Assembly (NCBI GenBank): GCA_005808505.1
Contig: SYLX01000070.1
Span: 1 to 64,000 of the forward strand
Reading direction: 5' to 3'
Source of the DNA: Bdellovibrionales bacterium
GTDB lineage: Bacteria > Bdellovibrionota > Bdellovibrionia > Bdellovibrionales > JAMPXM01
Length of the DNA stretch: 64,000 nucleotides
The position numbers were made by a program, and so were the translations under genes. Below, in pieces: positions 29,802 through 38,504 of the stretch. Below the pieces are notes generated by a model. The model searched no databases, had not been told where the DNA came from, and saw only the letters and a list, made by a program, of their open reading frames with translations. Numbering within the stretch: position 1 is the stretch's first letter; every line of letters begins with the position of its first letter.

Positions 29802-30209
29802 TCAATTCCGCTCACAACGGCCAGACTTACAGCTGTATGGAAACGGGCAGCTTTTAAATACGTTGCATTCGACGCCGTCGCCATTACTCTTCACGCAGCG
29901 ACCGCTCTTGCAACTCGCCGGAAACGGGCAAGAATTAAAAACATCGCATTCAACACCATCACCGTTGCTCTTTACGCAGCGACCGTTCTTACAACTCGCC
30001 GGGAAGGGACAAGGCTTAAAGATGTTGCAGATCTGGCGAAGGGAGCCGGTTGAGATTTGATCCTGCTCGACGTCACTTTGCGTTTGCTCCGTATGAAGTG
30101 TTGTCTGTGCTTCCGAAACGTCACCGTCTTGTGCAAAGGCGATATTCATCGCAAGAAGCGCGATCATCACGGCCGTGCATAAGCTCAAGATCCATTTTTG
30201 ATATCCCAT
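29802..30209 (-). CDS. Secreted protein with three tandem Cys-rich repeats
   Basis: The 135-residue product has a signal peptide (MGYQKWILSLCTAVMIALL, cleavage IAFA-Q), a Gln/Thr-rich spacer, and then three 27-residue units of the form C(N/D)(I/V)F..CPFPASCK.GRCVKSNGDGVE. Each unit has four Cys. The last unit ends in CERN. The start has GGGGGAT upstream. The units are repeated at DNA level (81 bases), so the array can expand or shrink by recombination. The CPFPASC-GRC module resembles the C-terminal module at 16072-16542. A binding or protective role outside the cell is likely. Confidence 0.8.
   Translation of the reverse strand: MGYQKWILSLCTAVMIALLAMNIAFAQDGDVSEAQTTLHTEQTQSDVEQDQISTGSLRQICNIFKPCPFPASCKNGRCVKSNGDGVECDVFNSCPFPASCKSGRCVKSNGDGVECNVFKSCPFPYSCKSGRCERN
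29841..30040. repeat. Tandem 81-base repeat, about two and a half copies
   Basis: Copies begin at 29841, 29922 and 30003 and encode the Cys-rich units. The first two are the most similar in DNA sequence; the third is diverged. Confidence 0.85.
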
Positions 30210-30449: not shown

Positions 30450-32333
30450 ATGAAATCAAAACTCGCAAAAGTGACCCTGGGAATCTCGCTCTTCGCAGAG
30501 GCACTTCTTCTTCAGGGATGTGCCGGTGACTTCAAACCTGTATCGACACTGACCCTTCCTTCAAATGCAGGTCTCGATGGCGGTGGAACAACGGTCGCGG
30601 TTGACGGAAAAACTCTCTACGCCAACAACTGCGCAGCTTGCCACGGGCCGGTTGCGACTTCGACGAAGATGGGTCGAGTCGCGCAGCAAATTCAAGCCGC
30701 CCTCTCTTCGATTCCGCAGATGAAGCCAATTCAATTAACGACTAACGAAATCAGCCTGATCGCGGCAGCCCTTGCTCCTTCGCAGAATTCGGCGGCCGTA
30801 ACCCCTACCGAAGCGGCTGCAAAATACTTCCCGCTTCCGGATCGTGAGAAGGCACCTAAGAGAATTTCGCGCCTCACCCGCGATCAACTCGAGGTCACAA
30901 TCAAAACTCTTTTCTCATCCTATCCGCTTCCTTCCATAAAGAATGCGCTACCGGCTGATCCGCTCATCACTAATTATGAATACTCGGAAGTCTTGAATTT
31001 CAATGCTGCCAATTTTGCTCCTTTTAAAACTTGGCTCGATCAAGTTGTAGCTGCCGTGCGAGCAAATCCCGCAGGCCTTATCAACTGCACCTCCATGAAC
31101 AACTCGCAAACTTGTCTTCAAACTCAAGCGCGGGCTTTCCTGGTCAAAGCTTTTCGCGGCGACGTGAGTGAAGCGAAGCTAACGGAACTCACGAACTTTT
31201 ATGTTACGGCTTTTTCTAAAACGGATCTCGCGACGGCAACCGGTGATCTAGTCGATATTACTCTTAGTTCGCCGCAATTCCTCTTTCGGGAGGAGTACGA
31301 AATCTCTGCAAGCACGGCACAACTTGTTCCTGCCGAACAACTCCAGCTCCTCACGTACGGTCTCGCCGATGCTCCACCTGAGAAGCTCGCAATGAATTCG
31401 CTGAATGCGGCTAGTTACGTCAGTGCTTCAGCTCAGCCAGCTACCATCAACGCGGTTCTTTCTACACCAGAAGCTCGCGCAAAACTTTCGCGCTTCTTCC
31501 TCGCGTGGCTGGAAGTCAAAGAAGCAAGTGAGTACAACCTCGCACCCTCTCTTTTCCCTGAGTTCACTTCGCAAGTCGCGGCTTCGGCCGTGAACGAGAC
31601 AAAGAAGTTTTTAAATCACCATGTGACTCGGCCACAAATCAGCCTCAAAGACATCACGCTCGCAACTCAGTCCTTCGTAGATGCCAACCTCTCGAACATT
31701 TACGGCGTGAGTGCTGCGGATCCCATGGGCAACTCACTAGTCAACCTGAATCCGGCTGAGCGTCTCGGCATTTTCTCGCAACCTGCCGTCATTGCATCGC
31801 ACTCAGGACCTGATACGACCCGCCCGGTGAAACGAGGAGCATTCTTCGCCCGCAAGGTCATGTGCATCCCGATCGCGGGAACTCCTCCCGATGTCGACAC
31901 AACTCTGCCCGATAACCGTGCGCAAACGCTTCGCCAGAAAATCGAAGCAGCTACGAATAACTCGCGCTGCATGAGCTGTCATAGTGCGCTCAACCCGATG
32001 GGCTTTTTCCAGGAGCGCTACTCCGCAAGCGGCAAGTGGCGGACGACTGAAGACGGGCTAAACGTCGACGCACGCATTAACTTCACTTCGCTTGATGAAG
32101 GTTCGCTCCACACCGATGGTCCTGTGGAAACGATCAAAGGATTAAGCCAGTCCATGATGTTCCAACAATGTTTTATCCGTCAGATGTTTCGCTTCTATAT
32201 GGGTCGCGCCGAGACTGCGTCTGACGATCCGGTTCTTAAGGAGATGTTTCTCGCGTTTACCGCAAACGACAAGCAAGACGTTCTAGCAGCGCTCAAGACT
32301 TTGGCGAACTCTTCACGGCTCAATAATCGATAA
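30450..32333 (+). CDS. DUF1592/DUF1588-type cytochrome c lipoprotein
   Basis: The 627-residue protein has a lipoprotein signal (LAKVTLGISLFAEALLLQGC), so it is anchored by lipid. It has an N-terminal c-type haem site (NNCAACHGPVA, about residue 60), then the DUF1592-type helical core (RISRLTRDQLEVTIKTLF, SPQFLFREEYE). A DUF1588-like segment contains VKRGAFFARKVMCIPIAGTPP and a second CxxCH (CMSCHSALNPMGF), and a DUF1585-like end (QQCFIRQMFRFYMGR) closes the protein. This layout is typical of planctomycete and myxobacterial proteins found beside DUF1552, as here. The role is unknown; an oxidative attack on polymers has been suggested for the wider group. Coupled to the next gene by 10 bases. 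Confidence 0.85.
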   Translation: MKSKLAKVTLGISLFAEALLLQGCAGDFKPVSTLTLPSNAGLDGGGTTVAVDGKTLYANNCAACHGPVATSTKMGRVAQQIQAALSSIPQMKPIQLTTNEISLIAAALAPSQNSAAVTPTEAAAKYFPLPDREKAPKRISRLTRDQLEVTIKTLFSSYPLPSIKNALPADPLITNYEYSEVLNFNAANFAPFKTWLDQVVAAVRANPAGLINCTSMNNSQTCLQTQARAFLVKAFRGDVSEAKLTELTNFYVTAFSKTDLATATGDLVDITLSSPQFLFREEYEISASTAQLVPAEQLQLLTYGLADAPPEKLAMNSLNAASYVSASAQPATINAVLSTPEARAKLSRFFLAWLEVKEASEYNLAPSLFPEFTSQVAASAVNETKKFLNHHVTRPQISLKDITLATQSFVDANLSNIYGVSAADPMGNSLVNLNPAERLGIFSQPAVIASHSGPDTTRPVKRGAFFARKVMCIPIAGTPPDVDTTLPDNRAQTLRQKIEAATNNSRCMSCHSALNPMGFFQERYSASGKWRTTEDGLNVDARINFTSLDEGSLHTDGPVETIKGLSQSMMFQQCFIRQMFRFYMGRAETASDDPVLKEMFLAFTANDKQDVLAALKTLANSSRLNNR

Positions 32334-32343
32334 GGGGGCAGTT

Positions 32344-33768
32344 ATGAAAAACTCAAAACCACTTCTCACCCGTCGCGATCTGATCAAACAACTCGGTTTT
32401 GCTGCCTTCATCATGCATCCGCTCCTACGAAGTATGGCCCTTGCTGCTTCGACACCTTTCGCGAACGCACCTCGTTTCGTCATGTTCTTCAAAGGTGCTG
32501 CGTTTCAGCCATCGCAAATGCCGACGAGCCTAGCGGCCATGGCGGGAACTCCGCTCGCATCCCTCCAGCCGCACGCAAATGACTTCATCTTGTTTAAGAA
32601 CATGAACATCCACGGCGGCTCACCGAAGGCCTCTTATCAAGAGGAGCATGGCGCAGGACTTTTCGGCTGCGTTACCGGAAACTCTTTGAAGTACACAAGT
32701 AACGATTCGTACTTCGCGTATACTGATTTTGAATCGATCGATATTCGCATCGCTCGCGAGTACCAAGCGCGTGCTGGTCTCTCGAGTCTGCCGATCTCAA
32801 GTCTGCACATAGGCGGCGGCGCGCATTCGGATGCGGACAGCGTAGGCCTCGGGCAGCGTTACATCTCCTTCCGTAACCGGCAAGCGGGGGATTCGACTTA
32901 TGGAAACGCGATCGAGCCGATTCAAAATGCCGGTCAAGTCTACGACATGCTCATGCAGCGAATTAACTTAATGTGCGCAGGATCATCCAACCAGCCAAAC
33001 GCGGATCAAGCAAAACTTCGCGCAACGCTGGAGCAGAAAAAAAGCGTATTGGATTTGAAGTTAAAAGAAATTCAGGAAGCCCGCTCAAAGTTCGGACTAG
33101 ATTCCGAGCACTCCAAAAAGCTCGACGGACTTCTCGAAGGATGGCGCGAAGCGGAGAAGCTTGTTTCAGCTGAACTTGCCAACCTTGGACAAAATCAAGG
33201 CGGCTCTGGGCAAATGTGTCCGTCGATCACGCGCCCGACCGGAAACGGAACTAAAAAACAAAATTTAGATGAACTCTCGCCCGTTCACGACCAGATGATC
33301 AGCATGGTGCAACTCGCCTTCCAGTGGGATCTCACGCGGGTCGTGGCTTTCACTCTCTCTGGGGCTTCATGCGGACAATACAGCCCGAGCCGCGGCGTGA
33401 ACTCTGCCCATCATTCTCTTGAACATGCAAATAACCTTTCGCAATTAGCAAAAGTCGATGCGTACTACGCCGAAAAGTTTGCGGGCTTACTTAGCGCCCT
33501 TAAGAAAGTTGACGACGGAAACGGGCAAACAGCTCTCTACAACAGCTCGATCGTTTTCGGACAAGAGTGCTGGAGCAGCAGTGGACACTCTCTCAAAGGA
33601 GTTCCGTTCATGCTCGCTGGCCAAGGTGGTGGAAAATTCATGAGCGGAAGAATCGTGGACGCTGGAGGCCGCAACAACAATGATCTTCTCATCTCTTGCT
33701 TGCAGGCTTCAGGCGTTCAGGCTTCGACATTCGGCATGGCGTCGCTTTGCAAAGGACCCATCGTTTAA
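32344..33768 (+). CDS. DUF1552 family protein with Tat-like signal
   Basis: The 474-residue protein starts with TRRDLIKQLGFAAFIMHPLL, a twin-arginine-like signal that would export it folded. The body matches DUF1552: FVMFFKGAAFQPSQMP, DFILFKNMNIHGG, GAGLFGCVTGN, SIDIRIAREYQ, LRATLEQKKSVLDLK, MVQLAFQWDLTRVVAFTLSG and SAHHSLEHA. The fold is related to sulfatase/alkaline-phosphatase-like proteins (DUF1501 relatives). With the upstream cytochrome c lipoprotein it forms a conserved two-gene unit whose substrate is unknown. A strong intrinsic terminator lies 13 bases after the stop. Confidence 0.85.
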   Translation: MKNSKPLLTRRDLIKQLGFAAFIMHPLLRSMALAASTPFANAPRFVMFFKGAAFQPSQMPTSLAAMAGTPLASLQPHANDFILFKNMNIHGGSPKASYQEEHGAGLFGCVTGNSLKYTSNDSYFAYTDFESIDIRIAREYQARAGLSSLPISSLHIGGGAHSDADSVGLGQRYISFRNRQAGDSTYGNAIEPIQNAGQVYDMLMQRINLMCAGSSNQPNADQAKLRATLEQKKSVLDLKLKEIQEARSKFGLDSEHSKKLDGLLEGWREAEKLVSAELANLGQNQGGSGQMCPSITRPTGNGTKKQNLDELSPVHDQMISMVQLAFQWDLTRVVAFTLSGASCGQYSPSRGVNSAHHSLEHANNLSQLAKVDAYYAEKFAGLLSALKKVDDGNGQTALYNSSIVFGQECWSSSGHSLKGVPFMLAGQGGGKFMSGRIVDAGGRNNNDLLISCLQASGVQASTFGMASLCKGPIV

Positions 33769-33834: not shown

Positions 33835-34116
33835 CATTCTTCACGAATCCTCATGTTTCTTAGCGAACAAGAGGTAACTCTACTGATTAAGAGCCGCAAG
33901 CGATGGAGGCACATGCCTTTAACCTTCCGTTAATGGAGGTCGCTCTATTCTCTCTAGGACACCCAAATCTGCAGAGAATCGCTTCTATAACAGGTTATCG
34001 CTGTCTAATCTGTTGACGATCAAGAATGAACTACCTGACGAGATCTACCCCTATTGACGCCAAGCAGACGTTGCCGTCATATAGGGCTGTTCACCGACAA
34101 ACCGAGGAGAACTCGG

Positions 34117-34821
34117 ATGGGAAATTCCCACCAGGCCACATTTCAGACGACGTTTGACCAAGCAGCCGAGTTCCGTGAACTCTGCGTACTGCTCACTCAG
34201 CTCACGCGGGCACACGGAGTACGAACCGTTGCCTTTGACGATCCTAGCCTACGCCACTTTACAGCGCTGAAACATGATCAACGTGTTCAGTGTTTAGATC
34301 TATTGCGTAACTACGTCGACGTTCTAAGCTCGGCTGATAATGAGGGTCTCGACCTCACGGACTCTCCGCTCCTTACGTTCAAAATGATCCGCAAGATGGG
34401 TCTGACAGCGCCCAGCGACATCTTTGATAAGATGACTCGTGACTGCGTCGTTGAACTCTATAATCGCGACAACATTCAGATCTTCCGCAACTTACGCTTC
34501 TTTGAAATTTGCAGTTACACGATTGAAGACATCATTTGCCGAGAATGGTGGAAACTCTATTCTCGAGAAGACGAAATCACTCGCGGCATCTTCGTTTGGG
34601 GGAGCCGGATTTTCAGCCAAGAAGTTTCGCGTACGGTACGACCAGAAATCCCACGCCACGTTTTGCGTGAAAACGAATCCTTCCGACGCTTTGGAATGTA
34701 CGTTGATCTCGATTTCATGACGCCCGTCTATGCAGGCAAGGAAGTATTCGGCGCGATCGTTGTCGAAAAAGCCGAGATCTTTGAAGCTTTGCCGATCTCA
34801 TCGGCGGAAGCCCTGGCGTGA
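34117..34821 (+). CDS. Hypothetical cytoplasmic protein
   Basis: The 234-residue product starts at 34117 after GAGGAGAAC. It is helical and polar in its first part (FDQAAEFRELCVLLTQLTRA, RVQCLDLLRNYVDVL) and richer in aromatic residues later (FFEICSYTIEDIICREWWKLY, FGMYVDLDFMTP). There is no signal peptide. I recognise no family; the repeated short helices followed by a beta end suggest a sensory or adaptor protein. It is convergent with the GNAT-diiron fusion gene and may not be related to it functionally. Confidence 0.65.
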   Translation: MGNSHQATFQTTFDQAAEFRELCVLLTQLTRAHGVRTVAFDDPSLRHFTALKHDQRVQCLDLLRNYVDVLSSADNEGLDLTDSPLLTFKMIRKMGLTAPSDIFDKMTRDCVVELYNRDNIQIFRNLRFFEICSYTIEDIICREWWKLYSREDEITRGIFVWGSRIFSQEVSRTVRPEIPRHVLRENESFRRFGMYVDLDFMTPVYAGKEVFGAIVVEKAEIFEALPISSAEALA

Positions 34822-34865
34822 TCTAAAGAAAACCGGCCGCGCGGCGTGTGCCGCCGACGTCCGGC

Positions 34866-34901
34866 GAATTGACGGGCGAATTGACGGGCGAGTTGATGGA
34901 C
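34866..34901. repeat. Three 12-base tandem repeats
   Basis: GAATTGACGGGC occurs twice exactly, then once as GAGTTGATGGAC, in the 90-base gap between two convergent genes. A GCGGC / GCCGC hairpin precedes them. Confidence 0.85.
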
Positions 34902-34911
34902 CCGCGAATGA

Positions 34912-36279
34912 TCAAGCGGCCGATCGAAGGATGGTGCGCTCCCTCTTCATGCACTCGTCCAAAATTCCTGAGTACATGGCCGCGCATTGTCGAAGGTTCT
35001 GCTCAATCTGCTGCCGCTGCTCTGGACTCAGACCTTCCAGAAGTTCAAAGGCTTTATCCAAATGCCCAACGTCCTCTTCCGAATGAACTTTCAAAAAGTT
35101 TGATGCTTTTTTCCCGTGCGCCGCTTGCACGCGTTCGAAAGCTTTTTGCCCGTAATCAACGGCAATTCCCTCTAAGCAAAGAACGTAACCAAAAAAGGAT
35201 GCAGGTGATCGGAAGAACATCCAGAACACTTGGGATTGGTAGAACCCAGATGTGGATGCAAACTCACTTTGGAGCTCCATACCTAAATGTTTTAGGTCGT
35301 TGGTTAGGAGCAGTTCGTGATTTCTTTCTTCTTTAGCGTGATCCACAAAGCGATGATGAAGTTTATTATCGGGGAATAAAGATCCCGCAAGTGAGATCAG
35401 CCTCGTCGAATTTGAGACGAAGTAGTACGTTTGCGAAAGCCAGTTGGCGTAGAACTCCTTATCCTCCCAAGGAGACTCGACAAGCTTCTGCAGCAAGGGA
35501 GCTGTGGCTTCGCGATAGATTTCCATCATTGTCGCGCTTTTCATTTGAACTCCTTGAGATTTGGGCTGAACCGCTTGAAGCGAATGTGCATGAGTCTGGA
35601 CGTGGGTCACTTGCGTCGTATCAATCCGATCTTTCCAAAGCTGATCGACGAACTCGCGCGTAACTCCGTCTGGATGCGATTTCACTTCCTCTTTTGAGCA
35701 AGCCATGAGGCTGCAAAAATAATCGTACTTCGTGATCTGCTCTTGATACGTGCGAAAGCCCAACCGGTCCCCGATCTTATCGACCCCGATATCGGTTCTC
35801 GGCGTTCCGACGACGGCATCGTATCCCGACGCTTGCATCACGCGTTGACCTAACGAGACAAGAATATCGGCCCACGCGGTGCCTGAAAGCGACTTACGCC
35901 ACTGGGGATTGACGGTAAGATACTCCATACTCATCAATCTGATGCATCCAGCATTGGCTAATTTTTGGAGAGCCGAATCTTCAATGCCAGCGAAGTAAGA
36001 ATGCTCCCGGTCGCTACGAGCAGAAAGATCAAAGAAGGTGTAGAGATGCATCCCGACTAGCTCATGATTTCGATCGAGGATGCAGGCCGCGATGTCTTGG
36101 CGAAAGAATTCATCGGGGTTGAGGGCTTCAGCCTGATTCACCTTCTTAAAGACGGCATACCAAACTTCTCGCCATAGAGAGTAGGCCCGATTGCGAAGTT
36201 CAAGTTCGTCTTGTTTCGTCGAAAAGCCGCCAAGAGAGATGATCCGATATTGAAACGACTTGTTTTCAACCAGCTTCAT
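34912..36279 (-). CDS. GNAT acyltransferase fused to haem-oxygenase-like di-iron domain
   Basis: The 455-residue protein has two parts. Residues 1-210 look like a GNAT/autoinducer-synthase-type acyltransferase: RNRAYSLWREVWY, an acidic EFFRQDIAACILD, VGMHLYTFFDL, MEYLTVNPQWR and a final DRLGFRTYQ. Residues of about 245-450 are a helical bundle of the haem-oxygenase-like di-iron (TenA/PqqC-related) class, with HHRFVDHAKEERNHELLL, LCLEGIAVDYG and KVHSEEDVGHLDKAFE, where the E..H, E and H...D..H ligands fall in register. I infer acylation followed by an oxidation on one chain, making a small molecule. GAGGAC precedes the ATG, and a 19-base dyad lies 34 bases upstream. Substrates unknown. Confidence 0.65.
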   Translation of the reverse strand: MKLVENKSFQYRIISLGGFSTKQDELELRNRAYSLWREVWYAVFKKVNQAEALNPDEFFRQDIAACILDRNHELVGMHLYTFFDLSARSDREHSYFAGIEDSALQKLANAGCIRLMSMEYLTVNPQWRKSLSGTAWADILVSLGQRVMQASGYDAVVGTPRTDIGVDKIGDRLGFRTYQEQITKYDYFCSLMACSKEEVKSHPDGVTREFVDQLWKDRIDTTQVTHVQTHAHSLQAVQPKSQGVQMKSATMMEIYREATAPLLQKLVESPWEDKEFYANWLSQTYYFVSNSTRLISLAGSLFPDNKLHHRFVDHAKEERNHELLLTNDLKHLGMELQSEFASTSGFYQSQVFWMFFRSPASFFGYVLCLEGIAVDYGQKAFERVQAAHGKKASNFLKVHSEEDVGHLDKAFELLEGLSPEQRQQIEQNLRQCAAMYSGILDECMKRERTILRSAA

Positions 36280-36312
36280 CCGAATGTCCTCTTCATATAG
36301 ACTTTTCGGATA

Positions 36313-36331
36313 CTCAACATTATTTGTTGAG
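36313..36331. promoter_or_regulatory. Operator-like dyad upstream of the GNAT-diiron gene
   Basis: CTCAACA and TGTTGAG are perfect inverted repeats around a five-base AT-rich centre, 34 bases before the start codon. The size and symmetry fit a dimeric regulator. Confidence 0.5.
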
Positions 36332-36435: not shown

Positions 36436-37806
36436 TCATTTGCCGTTGAGCACATTTTGCCCTTTCCGAGACTGATCAATCGACTCGCCAAGAACCCGCA
36501 TCGCTTCTTGAGGCGCATGGAAGCCCATTGAATTTTCTGCTTCGACAAAATCCAAAAGAAATTGCGCCTGGCGCTGATGATTTTGCGCCTCCTTGAGGGT
36601 CATCTCGCCGGTCCCATTTGCTTTGGCGACCTTGATGTCCTTGATTAAATCTATCAAGGCATTCATGGCGGTGTTCCGTAAATTAAACGTGTTTGTCTGA
36701 ATGACGTCGACTTTAGCGCGTAAATCAGCTTCAGACGAGCGATGACACGTCTGACAAGCTCGATTGATATTGAGAAGTGGCGATCGGACGTGATGATCAG
36801 AAATTTTCATCGCGCCCTCTCTGATGTAGGGCATATGGCAGTCGGTGCAAGAAACGCCCGAACGCGCGTGGACCCCTTGCGAGTACATTTCAAACTCGGG
36901 ATGCTGCGCTTTGAGAACAGGTGCACCGGTCTCCGCGTGAAACCAATCTTTGTGGCCGTTTTCTTGGTAGTTGGCCAGGATGTCCGTTGCTTTCAGCCCT
37001 TTTTCCCAAGGATACGTCAGCCTTTTTTCAGGACCTTTAAAGTAGTATTCTACGTGGCATTGGGCACATACGAAGGTGCGCTTCTCCTGATGAGTCGCAT
37101 CGCGATTGACATCGAAGTCGAGCTTTCCTTCCAACGCTTTCACTTTTTTTATTCCTTCCATGAAGCCTGGGCGAGTCACCCGTAACTGCATCGTCTGGGA
37201 GTCGTGACAATCGATGCAGGAGACAGGGTGAGAAACATGCTTTACGGCCTCGGTGAATGGCATTTGATTCATCTTTTCAAAGCCTTTTATCAAGTCGCCA
37301 TCGCCAAGCTTCTTGTAGGGGACGTAGACCGAGCCGTGACAATGAATGCACGTCCCCGGCTGCTTCGCCGCCTGCTGACGCTGGGTGAAGATTTGATCGG
37401 TCAACATGTGGAAGTGCCCGCGTTCTTCTCGAAAATCGACCGAGAACGGATAACCAGCCCACATTGTTTTTAGGCGTGGATCTTCATCGAGCCTACTTTG
37501 AGCGACCACGCTTCTGGGATCAGCCTCGGTTGGCGCCCGGGGTACAGCCTCACTACCGCCGTATTTCGTACGAACTTGGTCAACCGTCTTCAGATAGCTG
37601 TCATATTGAAGTGGAAAGTTTTTGCCCCAAATTGCAGGATCAACGGTTTCTTCCGTCAATTCTACAACGCGGTAAAAGGGTTTTTTGCCTTCTTGCTTCT
37701 TCTCCATGATGTCGATCGTGAGCGCGATGATTCCAATCCCTGCGAGGAGACCAGCTAAACCGAACGCAAAAAATAGCCCAAGTTTTTTAGTTCTCATGCT
37801 TGCCAT
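36436..37806 (-). CDS. nrfA: Cytochrome c552 nitrite reductase, catalytic subunit
   Basis: The 456-residue protein has an N-terminal signal anchor and five haem c sites: CIHCH (153-157), CIDCH, CAQCH, CTDCH and CQTCH. Surrounding sequence is that of NrfA: RLKTMWAGYPFSVDFREERGH, QCHVEYYF, and the HPEFEMYSQGVHARSGVSC block with KISDHHVRSPL. NrfA reduces nitrite to ammonium with six electrons in the periplasm. The first, catalytic haem site is CxxCH, not the usual CxxCK, which defines the less common variant known from some other bacteria. I start at 37806, after GAGGAG. It is the second gene of an nrfHA operon, 17 bases after nrfH. Confidence 0.93.
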   Translation of the reverse strand: MASMRTKKLGLFFAFGLAGLLAGIGIIALTIDIMEKKQEGKKPFYRVVELTEETVDPAIWGKNFPLQYDSYLKTVDQVRTKYGGSEAVPRAPTEADPRSVVAQSRLDEDPRLKTMWAGYPFSVDFREERGHFHMLTDQIFTQRQQAAKQPGTCIHCHGSVYVPYKKLGDGDLIKGFEKMNQMPFTEAVKHVSHPVSCIDCHDSQTMQLRVTRPGFMEGIKKVKALEGKLDFDVNRDATHQEKRTFVCAQCHVEYYFKGPEKRLTYPWEKGLKATDILANYQENGHKDWFHAETGAPVLKAQHPEFEMYSQGVHARSGVSCTDCHMPYIREGAMKISDHHVRSPLLNINRACQTCHRSSEADLRAKVDVIQTNTFNLRNTAMNALIDLIKDIKVAKANGTGEMTLKEAQNHQRQAQFLLDFVEAENSMGFHAPQEAMRVLGESIDQSRKGQNVLNGK

Positions 37807-37823
37807 AACACTCCTCGAAGCTT

Positions 37824-38273
37824 CTATTCCAAATGTCCAACAGTGCTGTGACATCGGACGCACGAAAATGGTTCATTCTCAGTTGTCACATCGATCTGAT
37901 GAACAACATCAGTGTGACACTTACGGCAGGACTGCTCGGTGATTGCACCGTTTCTCTTGGTGATCTGAATCGGCTCATGAAAGTTGCCCGTGGTAAAGGC
38001 AACTGAGTGGTTCCATCCATTGAGAGCTTTTGTGAAATACTTGTTCACCACGCCCTTTGGCGTGTGACAGTCGTTGCAGACCGCAACGGCGTGGTGACTT
38101 GATTTTGTCCAAGCGTTGAAGTGATTCGCCATCACGTGGCAGTTCATGCACGCCTTCGGATCATTCGTCATGTATGCGGCACCATGGGCGTAGAAAAAGG
38201 TGTAGCCACCGATGCCCATCAGAAGACATACGCCAAACAGGGCTAGAATTTTTAGTACCGAATCTGCGCTCAT
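37824..38273 (-). CDS. nrfH: Membrane tetrahaem quinol dehydrogenase of nitrite reductase
   Basis: The 149-residue protein has one membrane helix (ILALFGVCLLMGIGGYTFF) followed by four haem c sites: CMNCH, CNDCH, CRKCH and CVRCH. This is the NapC/NirT-type subunit NrfH, which takes electrons from menaquinol and passes them to NrfA. The phrase ACMNCHVMANHFNAW and the HTPKGVVNKYF segment are family hallmarks. I start at the ATG at 38273; an in-frame TTG at 38348 is possible but less likely. The operon order nrfH-nrfA is standard. Regulation by an FNR- or NarL-like protein is expected, but I see no clear binding site. Confidence 0.93.
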   Translation of the reverse strand: MSADSVLKILALFGVCLLMGIGGYTFFYAHGAAYMTNDPKACMNCHVMANHFNAWTKSSHHAVAVCNDCHTPKGVVNKYFTKALNGWNHSVAFTTGNFHEPIQITKRNGAITEQSCRKCHTDVVHQIDVTTENEPFSCVRCHSTVGHLE

Positions 38274-38504
38274 CTCTTTCGAACCTCTACCAAGTTCAAT
38301 TCGATGACCAGTAGTCACAGTCGGCTTTTCAGTATTTAATAAACTCAAACGGGAATGTTGAAATCGCGTTAAACATGTGCCGTTTAGTCACTCTCAGTTG
38401 AGCTAAATGTCTCAGCCTGAGTCGATCAAACCTAGACAGTTCGCGGGGAATTTTTCGTGTTGGGATCAAATGAATCCAACGCGAACGACTTAAATCTCGG
38501 AATA

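What the first reader, a model, noticed from the sequence alone, without database searches (positions are those of the whole stretch)
34912..36331. GNAT acyltransferase fused to a haem-oxygenase-like di-iron domain behind a perfect 7-5-7 dyad
One 455-residue chain joins a GNAT/autoinducer-synthase-style N-terminal half to a helical bundle with E..H, E and H...D..H ligand spacing of the TenA/PqqC-related di-iron family. CTCAACA-N5-TGTTGAG lies 34 bases before its start. Acyltransfer followed by oxygenation on one enzyme, under a dimeric regulator, would fit synthesis of a new small-molecule signal or antimetabolite. The fusion is inferred by eye from motifs; the biosynthetic role is a hypothesis.
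Basis: partly seen in the sequence, partly recalled or inferred. Interest (0 to 1): 0.85.

Follow-up and report, generated by a model that had tools for sequence, protein, structure and literature searches.

The report
Fused acyltransferase-oxidase in Bdellovibrio-type module
In one relative of the predatory bacterium Bdellovibrio, two neighbouring enzymes (one that joins fatty acyl groups to small molecules, one that oxidises small molecules with iron and oxygen) have become a single protein; the pair belongs to a widespread, apparently undescribed gene set that also carries a sensor and looks built to make and sense an oxidised, fatty-acylated signal.

Summary
The 455-residue ORF (34912..36279, -) is real and both domain calls hold. 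The C half is a haem-oxygenase-like di-iron oxidase (PF14518 above its cut-off; all six 3His/3carboxylate ligands invariant in 36 relatives). The N half matches no sequence family, but its predicted fold matches FeeM (N-acyl amino acid synthase) and BjaI (acyl-homoserine lactone synthase). The fusion itself appears private to this genome: in every other full-length match in about 300 Bdellovibrionota genomes, the halves are adjacent genes with at least one stop between them. The disordered linker still holds the downstream gene's Shine-Dalgarno and ATG, so this looks like a stop-loss fusion of an operon pair. The 7-5-7 dyad is not conserved, and similar dyads are common. What is conserved is a module: acyl synthase + oxidase, usually tail-to-tail with a PAS-fold sensor and often an XRE regulator. 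B. bacteriovorus HD100 has it. Where the haem-oxygenase-like gene is missing beside a PAS gene, another oxidase (fatty-acid desaturase or FAD oxidase; P450 on one truncated contig) accompanies the synthase. Best reading: a LuxI/LuxR-like circuit making and sensing an oxidised N-acyl compound. The enzyme assignments are well supported; the signalling role is inference.

The parts
34912..36279 (-). 455-aa fused GNAT + haem-oxygenase-like di-iron (HDO) protein
35611..36279 (-). N-terminal GNAT-fold domain (residues 1-223), FeeM/BjaI-like N-acyl synthase fold
   Evidence: no sequence family; Foldseek 2g0b TMt 0.61-0.68, 5w8a/c/e TMt 0.61
35545..35610 (-). inter-domain linker, residues 224-245, predicted disordered (pLDDT < 50); corresponds to the GNAT 3' end plus intergenic spacer of unfused relatives
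35566..35568 (-). codon 238 (CAG) in ...L-Q-A-V-Q: best candidate for the lost GNAT stop codon (inference; several other linker codons are also one change from a stop)
   Evidence: relatives' GNATs end L-[KR]-[IVK]-A(-A)-stop
35550..35555 (-). AAGGAG Shine-Dalgarno 5 nt before internal ATG (codon 246, 35542..35544); retained start site of the HDO half
34912..35544 (-). C-terminal HDO domain (residues 246-455), ligands E318, H321, E370, H399, D403, H406; C-terminus RSAA
34117..34821 (+). PAS-fold protein (234 aa from ATG 34117; ORF open from TTG 34054), convergent with the fused gene; conserved module partner
   Evidence: AlphaFold2 pLDDT 91.1; Foldseek PAS domains prob 1.00
36313..36331 (.). 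perfect dyad CTCAACA-N5-TGTTGAG; not conserved in relatives

Best explanation
The ORF is a fusion, probably through loss of one stop codon, of two enzymes that elsewhere in the Bdellovibrionota are adjacent, apparently co-transcribed genes: a GNAT-fold N-acyl synthase of the FeeM/LuxI structural type and a 3His/3carboxylate haem-oxygenase-like di-iron oxidase. Proposed mechanism. (1) The GNAT half transfers an acyl group from acyl-ACP or acyl-CoA to an amine such as an amino acid (inferred from fold). (2) The di-iron half uses O2 to desaturate, cleave or oxygenate that product or its acyl or amino-acid precursor (inferred from ligands and from the swap with fatty-acid desaturases). (3) The oxidised N-acyl product is sensed by the convergent PAS-fold protein, which acts through an XRE-type regulator (encoded nearby in a little under half of the modules), giving a LuxI/LuxR-like autoregulatory circuit (inferred). 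In this genome the two catalytic domains are tethered by a disordered linker of about 20 residues. The retained internal Shine-Dalgarno and ATG could also yield free oxidase.
For: Di-iron oxidase: PF14518 above cut-off, PDB 3dde and MboA by profile, invariant 3H/3C ligands (ligand rule from PMC13108848). Synthase fold: FeeM and BjaI. Pair linkage: a match in 48/60 relatives and 77/188 good-quality genomes of the phylum, with gaps of -76 to +32 nt between the two genes. Module: of 56 GNAT genes with at least 2.5 kb on each side, 44 have an HDO gene and 47 a PAS gene within 3.5 kb, 40 both; order and strand vary while the set persists. Trees of the three families correlate (r 0.41-0.54, 0/1000 permutations). 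PAS fold: pLDDT 91, Foldseek prob 1.00; XRE: HTH_3. Tailoring swap: all 7 GNAT+PAS modules without HDO carry another oxidase, 5 FA_desaturase and 2 FAD_binding_4; a truncated contig has P450; others carry a desaturase in addition. Precedent for an HDO-made autoinducer: PvfB (PMC10194917). Fusion origin: stops in all other full-length matches, retained SD/ATG, disordered linker.
Against: No substrate, product, metal content or regulatory effect is shown. Fold similarity to FeeM/BjaI is at about 11% identity, and amine acetyltransferases match almost as well. Some pairs lack PAS (4 of 56) and some GNATs stand alone (5 of 56). The window has no XRE gene next to the PAS gene. The fusion is one codon in one draft MAG (93% complete, 7% contaminated) and could be a base-calling error.
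Confidence: 0.55

Rival explanations
1. Membrane aminolipid or lipoamino-acid synthesis: the GNAT makes N-acyl amino acids that stay in the membrane (like OlsB products), and the oxidases hydroxylate or desaturate them (like OlsE); PAS/XRE regulate the pathway by redox or oxygen, with no cell-to-cell signal.
For: OlsB-type N-acyltransferases and N-acyl amino acid/AHL synthases are related, and OlsE hydroxylates ornithine lipid (PMC11631085). Several modules hold FA_desaturase-family enzymes.
Against: No member matches the Pfam models for OlsB-type or autoinducer synthases. No PlsC/OlsA-like acyltransferase was recognised among the recurring neighbours. Several modules per genome plus PAS solos fit a diversified signal better.
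Confidence: 0.2
2. A toxin, antimetabolite or siderophore-like product used against prey or competitors; PAS/XRE only control when it is made.
For: HDOs commonly make antibiotics and metal-binding chalkophores (PMC13108848); MboA of mangotoxin synthesis is the second-best profile hit; the host group includes predators.
Against: No exporter, resistance gene, NRPS or carrier protein was recognised as a recurring module member. The constant partner is a sensor with solo paralogues.
Confidence: 0.15
3. The fusion is an assembly or sequencing error; the genome really has two ordinary adjacent genes. (This concerns the fusion only and is compatible with the module reading.)
For: Only one case among about 300 genomes. 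The junction is one substitution away from a stop at several codons and keeps SD+ATG. Draft MAG, 269 contigs.
Against: The frame is open over 455 codons with no frameshift, and the whole linker is stop-free, so one specific substitution error at the stop codon would be needed.
Confidence: 0.25

Closest known systems
FeeM, N-acyl amino acid synthase (PDB 2g0b)
   Same: GNAT fold of the N half (Foldseek prob 1.00, TMt 0.61-0.68); FeeM is itself structurally close to AHL synthases without sequence similarity (PMC9654057)
   Different: about 11% identity, no Pfam/NCBIfam match; nearly always linked to an oxidase and/or a PAS gene here; substrates unknown
LuxI-type AHL synthase (BjaI, 5w8a/c/e) with LuxR receptor
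   Same: fold of the synthase half; synthase gene next to a gene for a PAS-fold sensor and, often, an HTH regulator; solo sensors also occur
   Different: no PF00765 match; sensor and HTH are separate proteins; an oxidase is added; no AHL evidence
Haem-oxygenase-like di-metal oxidases (UndA, CADD, MboA, PvfB)
   Same: PF14518, 3His/3carboxylate ligands, Foldseek to CADD and UndA
   Different: distant in sequence from the characterised members; partner is an N-acyl-synthase-like protein; reaction unknown
Pvf/mgo signalling (PvfB N-oxygenase)
   Same: an HDO-type di-iron enzyme helps to make an autoinducer (PMC10194917)
   Different: NRPS-based; no GNAT or PAS partner described there
SznF
   Same: an HDO domain within a multi-domain protein
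   Different: SznF pairs HDO with a cupin (own knowledge), not with a GNAT

Membership tests
HDO superfamily (haem-oxygenase-like di-metal oxidases) | seven-helix haem-oxygenase fold | tested here: met
   PF14518 35.5 bits, cut-off 28.9; Foldseek 3dde, CADD, UndA
HDO superfamily (haem-oxygenase-like di-metal oxidases) | three His and three carboxylate ligands | tested here: met
   E318, H321, E370, H399, D403, H406 invariant 36/36; 3H/3C definition from PMC13108848
HDO superfamily (haem-oxygenase-like di-metal oxidases) | bound Fe/Fe or Fe/Mn and O2-dependent activity | not testable with these tools
   needs purified protein
TenA/THI-4/PQQC (PF03070) | Pfam score above cut-off | tested here: not met
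   13.6 bits against 22, although TenA folds resemble it
[quoted passage not shown]
   four chains, prob 1.00
[quoted passage not shown]
   26 members against Pfam and NCBIfam, no relevant hit
[quoted passage not shown]
   assay needed
LuxI AHL synthase (PF00765) | Pfam Autoind_synth match | tested here: not met
   no hit in 26 members
LuxI AHL synthase (PF00765) | AHL-synthase fold | tested here: met
   BjaI 5w8a/c/e prob 1.00, TMt 0.61
Aminolipid N-acyltransferase OlsB (PF13444) | PF13444 match | tested here: not met
   no PF13444 hit in 26 members
Aminolipid N-acyltransferase OlsB (PF13444) | adjacent OlsA/PlsC-type acyltransferase | tested here: inconclusive
   recurring neighbour families beyond the module are same-genus synteny; not every neighbour was annotated
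PAS domain sensor | PAS fold | tested here: met
   AlphaFold2 pLDDT 91.1, Foldseek top hits are PAS-domain proteins; 5 of 26 members give weak PAS_9 hits
Quorum-sensing (synthase/receptor) system | product accumulates, binds the receptor and changes transcription | not testable with these tools
   only gene linkage is shown

The most novel reading that the evidence does not exclude
The module is a previously undescribed class of autoinducer system of predatory bacteria: a FeeM/LuxI-fold synthase whose acylated product is diversified by interchangeable oxidases (HDO, membrane desaturase, FAD oxidase, P450) and read by a PAS-fold receptor that works with an XRE regulator. Both enzymes tend to carry ssrA-like C-terminal -AA tails that would keep them short-lived, and in this genome the synthase and oxidase have become one chain.
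Probability: 0.4. Interest if true: 0.88.

Novelty: new variant of a known kind. Interest (0 to 1): 0.72.

Why it matters
My limited literature searches turned up no endogenous small-molecule signal for Bdellovibrio. This module is widespread in the phylum, is sometimes present in several copies, and occurs in the laboratory strain HD100 (G039, identified by its genome length), where PAS, GNAT and HDO lie on one strand and can be deleted. It gives a concrete gene set with which to ask whether these predators coordinate by a diffusible acylated signal. It also extends the HDO superfamily to a setting with an N-acyl-synthase partner. The private fusion supports the view that the two enzymes work on one pathway.

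Tried and rejected
Dyad as a conserved operator: rejected. Fusion as a family trait: rejected. nrfHA-linked nitrite/NO role: the nrfHA genes lie upstream on the same strand in the window, but no such gene family recurs at the other loci, so I treat it as incidental. PDB sequence search with GNAT and PAS profiles: nothing useful. The first alignment for folding misplaced the GNAT rows (A5) and was replaced by A7. Families conserved at ten loci of one genus look like ordinary synteny, not module parts. Literature searches on a GNAT-HDO fusion or a Bdellovibrio signal gave nothing direct.

Full report
1. The observation. The window holds a 455-codon ORF at 34912..36279 on the minus strand and a perfect CTCAACA-N5-TGTTGAG at 36313..36331. 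The genome (G000, contig 39) is a 5.0-Mb, 269-contig draft, 93% complete and 7% contaminated. All 15 loci found in the named genome collection are MAGs, 14 titled as Bdellovibrionota members and one only as 'bacterium', so the genome belongs to the Bdellovibrio phylum or very near it.

2. C-terminal half. Pfam PF14518 (Haem_oxygenas_2) matches residues 279-435 above its cut-off. The best PDB sequence match is 3dde (haem-oxygenase-like fold); a profile of 24 relatives also reaches MboA, a mangotoxin-synthesis enzyme. Across 36 relatives E318, H321, E370, H399, D403 and H406 do not vary. That is the three-His/three-carboxylate set described for UndA and CADD (PMC13108848). Foldseek on the predicted structure adds CADD and UndA. 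The half is an HDO by every test available here; metal content was not testable.

3. N-terminal half. No Pfam or NCBIfam family is found for it or for 25 relatives. The AlphaFold2 model (pLDDT 91 overall) matches FeeM (2g0b, four chains) and the acyl-homoserine lactone synthase BjaI with probability 1.00, but also several amine N-acetyltransferases. Conserved residues include W36, D56, F58, R60, Y95, E119, R161 and G174. That E119 corresponds to Glu94 of the FeeM pocket (PMC9654057) is a lead from motif order, not a test. So it is a GNAT-fold enzyme that most resembles N-acyl synthases; its substrates are inferred.

4. The fusion is private. One or both halves match in 48 of 60 relatives, and in 77 of 188 good genomes sampled from the phylum. 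Every match that spans both halves has at least one in-frame stop, except the window. Reading the loci shows two adjacent genes, usually GNAT then HDO, with gaps from -76 to +32 nt; in L074 the GNAT stop is followed directly by the HDO ATG. The window's own genome carries a second copy with a stop between the halves, broken over contigs 83 and 199. In the window the linker codes ...HSLQAV-CAG-CCC-AAA-TCT-CAAGGAGTTCAA-ATG: an AAGGAG Shine-Dalgarno 5 nt before an internal ATG (codon 246) survives, and CAG at codon 238 sits where relatives have L-[KR]-[IVK]-A(-A)-stop. Residues 224-245 are predicted disordered and the model has pTM 0.57, as expected for two independent domains on a tether. I infer a stop-loss fusion. 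A base-calling error cannot be excluded.

5. The dyad. Perfect 7-base-arm dyads with gaps of 0-12 occur 91 times in the window and exact 7-5-7 dyads four times; none of the other GNAT upstream regions has this sequence. In the whole genome there is one perfect copy and four with one mismatch; two of those four lie inside coding genes, and the other two are identical sequences with no recognisable module gene nearby. The dyad may still be an operator in this genome, but it is not evidence for the family.

6. The module. Clustering all neighbours found a third family in 31 of 40 loci, including window 34054..34821 (+), and a fourth, a ~98-aa XRE protein. The third family has almost no sequence-level match, but its model (pLDDT 91.1) matches PAS domains, with HIF/ARNT PAS-B and NifL among the first hits. 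XRE members match HTH_3. Among 56 distinct GNAT genes with enough flank, 44 have HDO and 47 have PAS within 3.5 kb, 40 have both; 25 have XRE. Orders differ: usually tail-to-tail, but also co-directional, GNAT/HDO divergent, or HDO before GNAT, so the association is not mere inherited synteny. Distance matrices of the three family trees correlate (r 0.54, 0.49, 0.41; 0 of 1000 permutations); shared species history contributes to this.

7. The oxidase is interchangeable. All seven GNAT+PAS loci without HDO carry another oxidase: a fatty-acid desaturase homologue in five (L110, L112, L113, L117, L118; PF00487 shown for L110 and L117) and a FAD-binding oxidase in two (L115, L116; PF01565 shown for L116). 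A truncated contig (L127) shows XRE, PAS, GNAT and a P450. Five further loci have a desaturase homologue in addition to HDO (L040, L042/L074, L082, L120, L121; the L121 match is weak). In two loci without PAS a histidine kinase sits beside the pair (L119, L068). A constant acyl synthase plus sensor with exchangeable oxidases, several of them fatty-acid desaturases, points to an oxidised acyl compound. This is the strongest functional argument I have, and it is indirect.

8. Related genomes. G039 is one contig of 3,782,950 bases, the published length of B. bacteriovorus HD100 (PMC2731167). It carries PAS, GNAT and HDO on one strand at about 2.370-2.372 Mb, a lone GNAT at 3.152 Mb, and five further PAS paralogues, one with its own XRE gene, reminiscent of LuxR solos.

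9. Protein tails. 23 of 51 GNAT and 28 of 51 HDO proteins end in AA, against 6 of 369 neighbouring proteins and 0 of 46 PAS proteins (Fisher p about 1e-18 and 5e-24, not corrected for relatedness). The tmRNA tags of four relatives end in LAA. I infer ssrA-like degrons. The fused protein keeps only the terminal tail (RSAA).

10. Mechanism and certainty. Shown: ORF, domains, ligands, linkage, swap. Inferred: acyl transfer to an amine; oxidation of that product or its precursor; sensing by PAS; regulation through XRE. My estimate is 0.9 for the two-enzyme architecture, 0.65 for an oxidised N-acyl product, and 0.45 for a signal read by the PAS protein.

11. Novelty. Each part is of a known kind by fold, but the combination appears undescribed in the searches I could make, which cover open-access papers only. 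I file it as a new variant of a known kind, and give the stronger reading, a new autoinducer class, a probability of 0.4.

Noticed in passing
L034-L088 (families) and window 34912..34926: GNAT and HDO proteins end in AA far more often than neighbours (23/51 and 28/51 against 6/369), resembling the ssrA tag ending LAA: possible ClpXP degrons on both enzymes; PAS 0/46.
   Followed up: partly
L110, L112, L113, L117, L118 (desaturase); L115, L116 (FAD oxidase); L127 (P450): Modules in which another oxidase gene takes the place of the HDO gene beside the GNAT and PAS genes.
   Followed up: yes
L108 (G000:C130:4500-15000): In the window's own genome three PAS-family genes lie together with an XRE-like gene and a response regulator (Response_reg + Trans_reg_C), next to two flagellin-like genes.
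   Followed up: partly
L119 4598-7495; L068 7464-10289: A histidine kinase gene lies beside the GNAT/HDO pair in loci that lack the PAS gene.
   Followed up: partly
L067/L111, L123, L124, L125, L126: Solitary GNAT genes of the same family without oxidase or PAS neighbours.
   Followed up: no
window 36436..38348 (-): Cytochrome c nitrite reductase genes nrfA and nrfH directly upstream of the fused gene on the same strand; not a recurring neighbour.
   Followed up: partly
window 34864..34900: Three tandem near-identical 12-bp units (GCGAATTGACGG) in the short convergent gap between the PAS and fused-gene stop codons.
   Followed up: no
window 29802..30209 (-): Small secreted-looking protein with three tandem Cys-rich repeats (CPFPxSCKxGRC).
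   Followed up: no
window 30450..33768 (+): Adjacent genes for a PSCyt3/PSD-domain cytochrome and an HXXSHH (DUF1552) protein, a pair best known from Planctomycetes (own knowledge).
   Followed up: no
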